Of a DNA stretch of 64,000 bases, positions 55,056 to 63,926 are shown one piece after another (the first letter of the stretch is position 1; each line of letters starts with the position of its first letter). Source of the DNA: Polytrichum commune (Eukaryota; Streptophyta; Polytrichopsida; Polytrichales; Polytrichaceae); assembly GCA_950295325.1 (NCBI GenBank), contig OX485807.1, positions 42,004,440 to 42,068,439 of the forward strand, given 5' to 3'. The notes beneath the pieces were generated by a model that was not told the DNA's origin, did no database searches, and saw nothing but the letters and a program-made list of their open reading frames with translations. Both the position numbers and the translations under genes were made by a program.

Positions 55056-58000
55056 TTAATCGCGGGACCGTAAGAAAGACTTCATCGAAGTCTGTTTGCC
55101 AGCACTCTCTTTCTGCTTCCTCCTTTTGCTTGGTTTAGCGGTTGGAGTCTGGTTCACGGCACTCCTCTTGGGTGCCTTGTTTTCCTGCAAAATTCAATAG
55201 TAATTAAGGTATCAGCATAGAGACAACGGATATGCCTTCCAGGACTGCTTGCAGTGCCAGTCCTTCTTGAAGAAATGCAGGGTGGGAGAAATTAACCTTG
55301 GGTATGTTCACAGGAGCTTCAGACGGCACACCATCGTGCGGACGCAAGACCTTCCCAGCTACATTGCCGCCCTCGCTGCTCTGATTCGTCAGTGCGAGTG
55401 GTTTCTTAGCATGAGTCGGTGGCTCGGAAGCCAAAGAATCAGCCTTGCCAATGGCGTGAGGATTACCTACTGCAACCTTGGTCGCTGGGGACTCCTTGAG
55501 AACATGTATAACCTTGGGTGCATTTTTAGGACCCTTACGTGGCAAGTAATTCGCAAGTAATTCGCTAGTGTCGCTCACCGTGTTAGTCTGCTTCTCGACT
55601 GCGAGAGGTTGCTTGCTGAGATGGGGAGATTTCGCCTTCTTATTGACATGAATGCTCGTATCCTCGAGCGATTTGGTTGCTGAAGTCGGCATTGGCGGGA
55701 CTGGGGGGCTAGCCAGTGTGTCTGGATGCATGTTAGATTCCCTTTCGTGTGTTGCTTGCACCTCGTTCGCTGAAGTATCTTCGATTTGCTTTGCCGGATG
55801 CAGGGTATAGAAGTTTGCAAGAGATTTTTCAGTAGATTCCGAAACCGCCTTCTTTCCTTCATTGGGAGAAAGTTGGCTCGACAGTTTCCTGCAGTAACAG
55901 TGAGGCGTAAGTAAAGCTGAACAGATAACACCATTTTGATGTTCGCACGAAAATGTCTTCATGAAGAAATAGCAAACACATGCCAGATTGCCAATCAGGT
56001 GAGAAGACGAGATATCCCTGCGATATGTGCCAAACCTTCAGCTCCTGTGCAGAGTGAGCTGAAGGTTTGGCACATATCCTCTTGACATTGTCCAAAATCA
56101 AGTCAAGTGCATTGTGAATCTAGTCAAAATGTCAAGAGGGACTCGATTTTGGACATTCACCACACAATTGCGTCCGACATGAAGAGTGAACACAAAGGAA
56201 TAGGCTCAGAGGCATACGGGTGAGAGCTCGTAGCGAAAGAAATCACCTCGCTAGAAAGTGCTTACCTCCTTTCAGAATTAAATTTTCGAGAGGCCTCAGC
56301 TTTGCTTGCTCTTTTGTTCAGCGCCTCAGTGCTCAAGCCATTTGGGAGTGATTCGATAAGTCTCTTGAGTCTTGACCCAAGAACTTGGTCCGATGGCATT
56401 GTTTCTTTTTCCGCTGAAGCTGAGGTTTCATCCTGAATGACAAGTAGTCCAGCTTAGCGTCTTCAACCAACACACAGATTGCAGTTCCTGGGTGTGCAGT
56501 TAAAATTATTGATTAAAGAGTCACCATAAAAACCGTACCTTTTGAAGCTCATCCTGGTCGGAAGATGTAACAAAGCGCTTGACAAATGAAATGTTCTTGT
56601 CTGACCTGGACGTTGAAAGAAATATCATCAGACAAAGAATTCTTATGAAGCTGGAAGGCAAAGATGTCTAGAACCAAACAAATGGAAGAAGCTACAAAAA
56701 AAAATCGAGGTACAAACTTTATCTTTCTGAAGTCTCTGTGACCGTGCTTGTGCGCAGCTCGCAAAAGGTCCTCATCTTCTTGCTTCCCCCACCACATGGG
56801 AAGCTTCTTGGACCTGCAGATATTCAGTTAAGAAACCTTTCCACATCACATTAAAATGAGTTGGAAGACATTCAAGACGTAAGTGGCAGTCTTTAATGCC
56901 GTTTGAAGAAGCTGTTAAACAATTTCTGAGCAACACACTTTGAAATCAGATATTACACAAATTAAAATCAGACATTTGTATCTCCAGATGAGAACTAGGT
57001 TAAGTCAAGCCATATCGAATAAGCATTCTAACAAAAGTACGGCAGTCGCCTTCATTTGCACATAGAAAGCATGGAAAGGCAGGCTGCGAAATCACTGACC
57101 TGACCGGCATGTGCATGAATTCCAACGCCCTCATTTCAAGAGCTGCAGCCAGAACGCTACGTTCATGAAGCTGCTGCAAGTAGCTGCATGCAAACACGAG
57201 CATTACTTCAGTGCCTTTAACCCTGAGCAGAATCTACGTTACAGAAGTCGATTGATCTCCTTATACAAACCATGTAGGAGACTGTAAGGGCAATTGTGAG
57301 AGGATTGTGGACAGAAAACCATTTTCGTGCATATCCCATCAAATTACACACAAATGAACATGGTCGATGAGAAGGATCGATAAGGCCATCATACCGCTGA
57401 GCACTCCTTTGAATCCGCTCCTTGCATAATTTAGATTCCATGACTCTCACCAAAACAGCTGGGAGGTGTTGGTCTAGTGGCACTTTGTTTGGATCACCCA
57501 ATTTGGGTGGTACTCCAACACTAGATTGTTTCAACTCCAAAGATGTGCTTGGCAATGCGCAATTTGTCACATTATTTGCACCAGCTACATCAACTGGTTT
57601 GCCCAAGCTCACACAGCTTTTGCAGGCCTCAATCAAAGCTTCCGAAACTTCATCAATCTCTTCACGACTACGATGGTTCAAGCCAGCTTCCTCTTGTATT
57701 TGCTCTGCAGAGCCAGACAAAACAGTTTAGGACAAGGAAGTCATCCAGGAATACCTTCCGGCATTCATGTCGTTAAACAAGATGTAAAATGTCCAATACC
57801 AAGATATTGTCCCTTACCAAGGGACGCTTGTCGGACAACGCAATTACGACTCTCACCTGTTCGACCTCTGCCAAGAGCAAACAATCTGTCCTCTAGTCGC
57901 TTGAACTCCTTGTCAGACCAATGATCAATGCCGTCCTCATCCACTTCGGACTCCTCCCGGTCCGCTGAACTGCTAACAAATTGTTTCCGACCACATTTCT

Positions 58001-63926: not shown

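What the first reader, a model, noticed from the sequence alone, without database searches (positions are those of the whole stretch)
55056..63926. A subfamily III (CHD7/Kismet-type) remodeler in a plant genome
Flowering plants are known for CHD1-type (CHR5) and CHD3-type (PICKLE) remodelers only. This gene carries the marks that set animal CHD6-9 apart: VKWC.LPY..STWE in chromodomain 2, an E.YF block after motif Ia, YRLITRN.YE...F..S...GLD.A.L, a LL..GAY block, F...DIDQIL..RT, and the SANT-like WW...D..LL...KHG block with a following D..(S/C)F. It is flanked by ordinary plant genes with similar introns, so contamination is unlikely. A retained ancestral CHD-III lineage in seed-free plants would change the view of CHD evolution.
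Basis: partly seen in the sequence, partly recalled or inferred. Interest (0 to 1): 0.75.

Follow-up and report, generated by a model that had tools for sequence, protein, structure and literature searches.

The report
Moss gene for animal-type CHD remodeler
A moss chromosome carries two copies of a chromatin-remodelling motor gene whose engine is most like the CHD6-9/Kismet proteins of animals, a class that papers describe as absent from plants.

Summary
On the minus strand, 63926-55056 is the main part of one intact gene: 22 exons in the window plus four upstream of it, 25 introns all GT-AG, 1,778 residues without an internal stop. A LEAFY gene points to a moss. A second copy, open through motor and SANT-like region, lies on the same 53-Mb contig. 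The moss also has separate CHD1-type and CHD3/PICKLE-type genes. In three maximum-likelihood trees both copies group with CHD6-9 at 100/99 to 100/100; joining them to CHD1 or CHD3 is rejected. BRK and the CHD6-9 tri-helical domain were not found, so the gene is CHD-III by its motor, not a CHD6-9 copy in architecture. Papers I saw call CHD-III absent from plants or animal-only. Ancient retention versus lateral transfer is untested.

The parts
63019..63926 (-). Coding exon (fifth of the gene): end of the acidic N-terminal region, divergent chromodomain 1 region, chromodomain 2, ATPase motif I (GLGKT)
   Evidence: acceptor ACAG, donor GTATGC
63196..63336 (-). Chromodomain 2 ([14 protein letters not shown])
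   Evidence: Pfam PF00385, 42.3 bits, residues 164-210 of the 1,382-aa in-window model
62567..62785 (-). Coding exon: ATPase motif Ia and HEFYF block
   Evidence: GT-AG
62112..62203 (-). Coding exon: ATPase motif II (DEAH)
61850..61963 (-). Coding exon: ATPase motif III (LTGTP)
61510..61597 (-). Coding exon, ATPase
61279..61368 (-). Coding exon, ATPase ([16 protein letters not shown])
60697..60819 (-). Coding exon, ATPase
60308..60394 (-). Coding exon, ATPase
60007..60123 (-). Coding exon, start of Helicase_C lobe
59726..59821 (-). Coding exon, Helicase_C lobe
59472..59564 (-). Coding exon, motif V ([13 protein letters not shown])
59247..59320 (-). Coding exon, motif VI ([25 protein letters not shown])
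   Evidence: the C of ARCHR is one of the group-III columns
58803..59001 (-). Coding exon: [28 protein letters not shown] and [10 protein letters not shown]
58535..58623 (-). Coding exon: [10 protein letters not shown]
57857..58272 (-). Coding exon: acidic linker and start of the SANT-like DNA-binding region ([22 protein letters not shown])
57395..57704 (-). Coding exon, SANT-SLIDE-like region
57100..57183 (-). Coding exon, SANT-SLIDE-like region
56718..56813 (-). Coding exon: [21 protein letters not shown] block
   Evidence: (HTH_CHD1_Hrp3 21.2 bits, below the cut-off of 27)
56539..56605 (-). Coding exon: SDKNISF block
56266..56432 (-). Coding exon, C-terminal region
55297..55888 (-). Coding exon, C-terminal tail without a recognised domain; its donor site (55296) is the least certain splice of the model
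55056..55184 (-). Last coding exon with stop codon; basic tail ending [13 protein letters not shown]

Best explanation
This is an intact moss gene, one of two old paralogs, for a chromatin-remodelling ATPase of CHD subfamily III by its motor. Shown here: an open frame across 26 modelled exons, the helicase motifs, a clear second chromodomain, a SANT-SLIDE-like region after the motor that scores closest to that of CHD7/8, a low amino-acid-changing rate in the motor since the two copies split, and grouping of the ATPase with CHD6-9/Kismet. Inferred from relatives: the two ATPase lobes pump DNA along the histone octamer and slide nucleosomes, the SANT-SLIDE-like region grips linker DNA and so sets direction and spacing, the chromodomains gate the motor, and the protein tunes access to developmental genes, as CHD7/8 and Dictyostelium ChdC do. 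It is not a CHD6-9 protein in full architecture: no BRK and no CHD6-9 tri-helical domain were found.
For: Gene model without internal stop: 21 of 21 in-window introns GT-AG and 4 of 4 upstream; its start MRLRERTQVDY is matched by MQLRERKPVDY in the second copy. ATPase stretch, identity to recalled human CHD7 51.5% (311 of 604) against 46.0% (242 of 526) CHD1, 47.7% (245 of 514) CHD4, 46.9% moss CHD1, 47.9 and 49.8% moss CHD3, 48.2% moss ISWI (aligned lengths differ). Trees: 100/99, 100/100, 100/100 with group III; AU rejects CHD1 (p 4.9e-5), CHD3 (p 2.2e-4) and a place outside the other CHDs (p 2.3e-5). Both copies share 16 of 54 group-III columns, 0 of 5 group-I and 2 of 9 group-II. SANT-SLIDE-like region: profile score 35.3 to CHD7/8 against 18.6 to yeast Chd1, 0 of 100 shuffles as high for either. 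Motor: pN 0.121 with synonymous sites saturated (pS 0.837) over 600 codons. CHD7 and CHD8 slide nucleosomes in vitro (PMC5512084, abstract and passages); loss of ChdC changes nucleosome spacing (PMC5378177, abstract and passages).
Against: No real CHD6-9 ATPase sequence was found (none named among the 60 shown of 86 and of 88 PDB matches), so the group-III rows are recalled; only CHD7 was checked, at 11 positions between 834 and 1302, and scattered errors and the part beyond 1302 are unchecked. The PDB search ranks CHD1 first. The identity lead of CHD7 over moss CHD3b is small (51.5 against 49.8%). BRK and HTH_CHD6-9 not found. Chromodomain 1 is not recognised by Pfam in either copy, its profile match is weak (5 of 100 shuffles as high) and its fold prediction is poor (pLDDT 39.8). 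The plant pair sits on a long stem (0.9 to 1.1 changes per column), so long-branch attraction is not fully excluded. No expression or biochemical data.
Confidence: 0.85

Rival explanations
1. A fast-evolving plant CHD1 (CHR5) paralog that converged on a few CHD7-like residues.
For: CHD1 chains are the best PDB matches; the DNA-binding region weakly hits the Pfam CHD1 model (21.2 bits in the window gene, 14.0 in the second copy, cut-off 27); a SANT-SLIDE region is shared by CHD1 and CHD-III.
Against: The genome has its own CHD1 gene (L007); a clade with CHD1 is rejected (p 4.9e-5 and 1.5e-5); 0 of 5 CHD1 columns are shared; recalled CHD7 also hits the same Pfam model at 22.7 bits.
Confidence: 0.05
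2. A divergent CHD3/PICKLE-type remodeler.
For: In the tree, groups II and III are neighbours (88/88); 2 of 9 CHD3 columns are shared; identity to moss CHD3b, 49.8%, is close to that to CHD7.
Against: No PHD or DUF1087 match at E up to 1 in the window gene's two scanned pieces or in the trusted part of the second copy; the genome has two PICKLE-type genes and two further loci with DUF1087 matches; clade rejected (p 2.2e-4 and 5.8e-5).
Confidence: 0.03
3. A CHD-III gene acquired by lateral transfer from another eukaryote, not kept from the common ancestor of plants and animals.
For: The papers seen report no CHD-III in flowering plants, so one transfer would need fewer events than many losses.
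Against: It falls outside the three animal rows, which hold together at 98/99 (all three recalled), so a bilaterian donor is unlikely; it has many introns; the two copies split long ago (synonymous sites saturated).
Confidence: 0.25
4. Contamination or a misassembled contig from an animal, amoeba or other symbiont.
For: Only one assembly is at hand.
Against: The gene lies on a 52.9-Mb contig with a second copy, 81% identical in the motor stretch (495 of 609), 14.7 Mb away on the same contig; the window has plant-like neighbours such as a PPR-type frame (named by eye); G+C there is within the range of the rest of the window.
Confidence: 0.02

Closest known systems
Animal CHD6-9 / Drosophila Kismet (CHD subfamily III)
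   Same: ATPase groups with them at 100/99 to 100/100; 51.5% identity to recalled CHD7; shared ARCHRIGQ, YRLITRN.YE and IDQIL..RT blocks; SANT-SLIDE-like region scores closest to CHD7/8
   Different: No BRK or CHD6-9 tri-helical domain found, chromodomain 1 divergent, tails without recognised domains, in a moss
Dictyostelium ChdC (CHD type III)
   Same: A CHD-III remodeler outside animals (PMC5378177, abstract and passages)
   Different: I had no ChdC sequence, so the relation is not tested; its paper calls type III absent in plants
Plant CHD1 (CHR5 type)
   Same: Chromodomain, Snf2 motor, SANT-SLIDE-like region
   Different: Separate gene in the same genome (L007); joint clade rejected
Plant CHD3 (PICKLE, CHR4/PKR1)
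   Same: Chromodomain and Snf2 motor
   Different: Separate genes in the same genome (L008, L010, L005); joint clade rejected; no PHD or DUF1087 match in the scanned proteins

Membership tests
CHD subfamily III, defined by the Snf2 domain | Snf2 ATPase groups with CHD6-9/Kismet apart from CHD1 and CHD3 | tested here: met
   100/99, 100/100, 100/100; CHD-III rows recalled, CHD7 checked at 11 positions of which one set the offset
CHD subfamily III, defined by the Snf2 domain | Tandem chromodomains before the motor | tested here: inconclusive
   Chromodomain 2 found by Pfam in both copies (42.3 and 43.9 bits); chromodomain 1 in neither; 5 of 100 shuffles match CHD7/8 chromodomain 1 as well; fold prediction pLDDT 39.8
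CHD subfamily III, defined by the Snf2 domain | SANT-SLIDE-like region after the motor, closer to CHD7/8 than to CHD1 | tested here: met
   scores 35.3 and 18.6, 0 of 100 shuffles reach either; only two recalled rows against one yeast row, so the comparison is uneven
Animal CHD6-9 architecture | BRK domain (group III trait in mammals per PMC8623811, passages) | tested here: not met
   No match at E up to 1 in the scanned proteins; genome search for PF07533, 0 matches, 6 of 6 candidates scored (such searches can miss weak matches)
Animal CHD6-9 architecture | HTH_CHD6-9 tri-helical domain (PF23078) | tested here: not met
   No match in the proteins at E up to 1; genome: 6 matches, 0 over the cut-off of 27 (best 24.6, at another locus); recalled CHD7 scores 146.4 bits
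CHD1 subfamily | Snf2 ATPase groups with CHD1 | tested here: not met
   AU p 4.9e-5, 1.5e-5
CHD3/Mi-2 (PICKLE) subfamily | Snf2 ATPase groups with CHD3-type; DUF1087 | tested here: not met
   AU p 2.2e-4, 5.8e-5; no DUF1087 hit in the scanned proteins, while the genome's four hits lie at other loci
ATP-dependent nucleosome remodelers | Nucleosome-stimulated ATPase and nucleosome sliding | not testable with these tools
   Needs purified protein

The most novel reading that the evidence does not exclude
All three CHD subfamilies were present in the common ancestor of plants and animals; mosses kept subfamily III, without BRK and with its own tails, and duplicated it long ago, while flowering plants lost it.
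Probability: 0.55. Interest if true: 0.68.

Novelty: new member of a known kind. Interest (0 to 1): 0.58.

Why it matters
Two papers seen here state that CHD-III is absent from plants (PMC5378177) or confined to animals (PMC4036436). A moss CHD-III gene would move the origin of this subfamily back towards the root of eukaryotes, or show a transfer, and would give a tractable plant in which a CHD7-like motor works without BRK domains. In humans the same class is linked to CHARGE syndrome and autism (PMC5378177), so what its motor does in an organism without animal development is a direct question.

Tried and rejected
Rejected: CHD1-type, CHD3-type and 'outside CHD' placements (AU tests); pseudogene (no internal stop in 1,778 residues, low pN in the motor); contamination (second copy on the same contig).

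Led nowhere: scans of viral contigs (321 pattern stretches, no relative) and of prokaryote genome contigs (22 stretches, no relative) for more CHD-III sequences. A structure prediction of the chromodomain exon was too poor to search with (pLDDT 39.8), so no fold search was made. The second copy was modelled by an alignment that penalises stops, so its open frame is partly by construction; it is trusted from chromodomain 1 to just after the SANT-like region, where 10 of 12 motor exons equal the window gene's in length; the model splits the chromodomain exon and one SANT-region exon by further introns, and its ends are not trusted. The window gene's last residues, KQTSMKSFL, look like a PCNA-binding (PIP) motif (recalled); a pattern search of the second copy's 3' flank printed none, so it is only a lead. 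Of ten paper searches, eight bore on CHD-III in plants and two sought CHD7 residue numbers (the second found nothing). In the listings of the eight I saw no report of CHD-III in a land plant; long lists were cut (for example 20 of 200 papers). Only one paper held both CHD7 and Physcomitr- (PMC10538959; passages), and the passages do not say so. The library misses most subscription journals, so absence in print is not shown. Two papers asked for by id are not held (Flaus 2006; one DOI).

Full report
What was checked. The stretch 55056-63926 is coding on the minus strand. I built the gene by hand from six-frame translations and the DNA. The 22 in-window exons are separated by 21 introns, all GT-AG, and join in phase into 1,382 residues counted from an inner ATG. 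The frame is open further up: L001, cut from the same contig, holds four more coding exons, again with GT-AG introns, and a start MRLRERTQVDY at C5:42070610; the whole protein is 1,778 residues with no internal stop.

What it encodes. Pfam finds SNF2 (2.3e-72), Helicase_C (1e-24) and one Chromo domain (7.2e-11) in the in-window protein; the block after the motor hits HTH_CHD1_Hrp3 below its cut-off (21.2 bits against 27); no BRK, PHD, DUF1087 or HTH_CHD6-9 match appears at E up to 1. The N-terminal 614 residues give the same Chromo domain and nothing else. The second copy, chromodomain 1 to just past the SANT-like region (1,040 residues), gives the same picture. In the PDB the best of 86 matched sequences is a CHD1 (456 bits), then yeast-type Chd1 chains, CHD4 and ISWI types (species names are recalled). 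With recalled CHD7 as query, no CHD6-9 is named among the 60 shown of 88.

Which organism. The genome has 407.8 Mb in 64 contigs. LEAFY loci were found with PF17538. The one searched (L014) matches 4bhk best, 218.7 bits (Physcomitrella LFY1 by recall), against 171.1 for 2vy1, PROTEIN LEAFY (Arabidopsis by recall), and 168.5, 166.2 and 111.9 for three others. So it is most likely a moss. The contig lengths printed for C1, C2, C3, C5 and C6 are 77.9, 70.3, 59.2, 52.9 and 44.7 Mb. About seven large contigs would fit n=7 mosses such as Polytrichales; that is recall and guess, not a test.

Other CHD genes of the same genome. A search with the motor found the window gene and one close paralog at C5:27338465-27342653, 62-87% identical match by match. 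The same genome has a CHD1/CHR5-type gene (C6:43570-43579.5 kb, with an over-cut-off HTH_CHD1_Hrp3 match), two PICKLE-type genes (C5:9.55 Mb, C3:29.95 Mb), a CHR4/PKR1-like gene (C5:33.3 Mb) and a divergent CHD-like gene (C1:36.04 Mb), these last four with DUF1087 matches over the cut-off. The names PICKLE, CHR4 and PKR1 were given by eye from recalled features. The window pair is therefore extra to the usual plant set.

The second copy. A spliced alignment gives 1,113 residues with 701 identities and a start MQLRERKPVDY. In the motor, 10 of 12 exons have the same length as in the window gene; the model adds an intron in the chromodomain exon and splits one SANT-region exon. The aligner penalises stops, so an open frame is partly built in; the equal exon lengths are the better sign that the copy is intact. 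Over 600 codons of chromodomain 2 and motor, pN is 0.121 and pS 0.837, which is saturated; over 195 codons of the SANT-like region pN is 0.346 and pS 0.856; over the N-terminal region pN is 0.543 and pS 0.811. The copies split long ago and both motors changed little, which I read as selection.

The tree. Numbering was anchored on Ser834; ten further residue numbers printed in PMC8623811 and PMC6543684 (passages) agree, 10 of 10. That speaks against net insertions or deletions between 834 and 1302, but not against scattered substitutions or errors beyond 1302. CHD8 and Kismet were also recalled and are unchecked. With 15 rows (LG+C20+F+G4) the moss pair joins CHD7/CHD8/Kismet at 100/99; a clade with CHD1 costs 44.4 log units (p 4.9e-5) and with CHD3 39.6 (p 2.2e-4). 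With CHD7 alone as group III, the divergent L011 left out and the alignment trimmed to the motor: 100/100, p 1.5e-5 and 5.8e-5 (12 rows). With CHD7 alone and the full stretch: 100/100; a place outside the other CHDs is rejected (p 2.3e-5) (13 rows). With 10% of the recalled CHD7 positions randomly redrawn the grouping stays in 3 of 3 draws (support 99.6-99.8) and with 25% in 3 of 3 (95.1-99.4) (quick trees). The pair's stem is long (1.09, 0.9 and 1.0 changes per column). Of columns fixed in one group and absent in the others, the pair shares 16 of 54 for III, 0 of 5 for I and 2 of 9 for II; the III count is large partly because those three rows are close to each other. The motif VI spelling ARCHRIGQ is among them: the ten other rows have A where III and the pair have C. 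Plain identity is less telling: 51.5% to CHD7 against 49.8% to moss CHD3b and 48.2% to moss ISWI, over different lengths.

The region after the motor. As a two-row profile it scores 35.3 against the SANT-SLIDE region of recalled CHD7/8, 20.7 against their second such region and 18.6 against one yeast Chd1 row; 0 of 100 column shuffles reach any of these (maxima 7.1, 9.4, 9.5). Two rows against one is an uneven comparison. Chromodomain 1 is in the right place but weak: 5 of 100 shuffles score as high against CHD7/8 chromodomain 1, and AlphaFold gave pLDDT 39.8.

How it most likely works. Shown: an intact CHD motor with CHD-III affinity, a chromodomain and a SANT-SLIDE-like region. Inferred from relatives: it slides nucleosomes by DNA translocation, as CHD7 and CHD8 do in vitro (PMC5512084, abstract and passages; CHD6 in the same paper does not slide), with the region after the motor sensing linker DNA; and it sets nucleosome spacing at developmental genes, as ChdC does in Dictyostelium (PMC5378177, abstract and passages). 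Without BRK its partners probably differ from those of animal CHD6-9.

What is known. [quoted passage not shown] PMC6474313 and PMC2507757 (passages) and PMC13398078 (passages) mention no third class in plants in the passages seen. I saw no paper on CHD-III in a land plant in the listings of eight searches of an open-access library that misses most subscription journals. Public databases may already hold moss orthologs under automatic names; that was not testable.

Verdict. A real, intact gene, CHD-III by its motor, in a moss: a new member of a known kind in a kingdom where it is said to be missing. Retention from a common ancestor is the reading I favour, but lateral transfer is not excluded.

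Noticed in passing
G000 C1:40571878-40572195 (L013) and C1:62299295-62299612 (L014): This genome has three LEAFY loci in the search. L014 reads KPKMRDYVHCYALHCLD..GAWCQACY, as 4bhk does, while L013 reads KPKMRHYVHCYALHCLD..GAWRQACY, with the H and R seen in 2vy1: both DNA-specificity types side by side (type names recalled).
   Followed up: partly
window 56022-56078 and 56089-56155: Two inverted repeats in one intron of the CHD gene: 23-nt arms 100% complementary with 11 nt between, and 16-nt arms 94% complementary. Could be a small foldback element.
   Followed up: partly
window 55056-55184: The protein ends [13 protein letters not shown], close to a PCNA-interacting (PIP) motif (recalled); a pattern search of the second copy's 3' flank printed none.
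   Followed up: partly
G000 C1:36036500-36046000 (L011): A divergent CHD-like gene with a long branch (1.9 changes per column) that falls with CHD3 types; its DUF1087 match is 27 bits. Its subfamily is unclear.
   Followed up: partly
G000 C6:26611233-26611331: A second match to HTH_CHD1_Hrp3 over the cut-off (34.5 bits), away from the CHD1 gene at C6:43.57 Mb.
   Followed up: no
window 5461-7101, 33581-34060, 46820-47806: Neighbouring open frames look like a PPR protein, an NDUFAF7/MidA-like exon and an Mpv17/PMP22-like exon (by eye).
   Followed up: no
G000 C2:48901043-48902518 and C2:48999685-49001160: Two SNF2 loci with identical scores about 98.6 kb apart, a recent duplication or an assembly repeat.
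   Followed up: no
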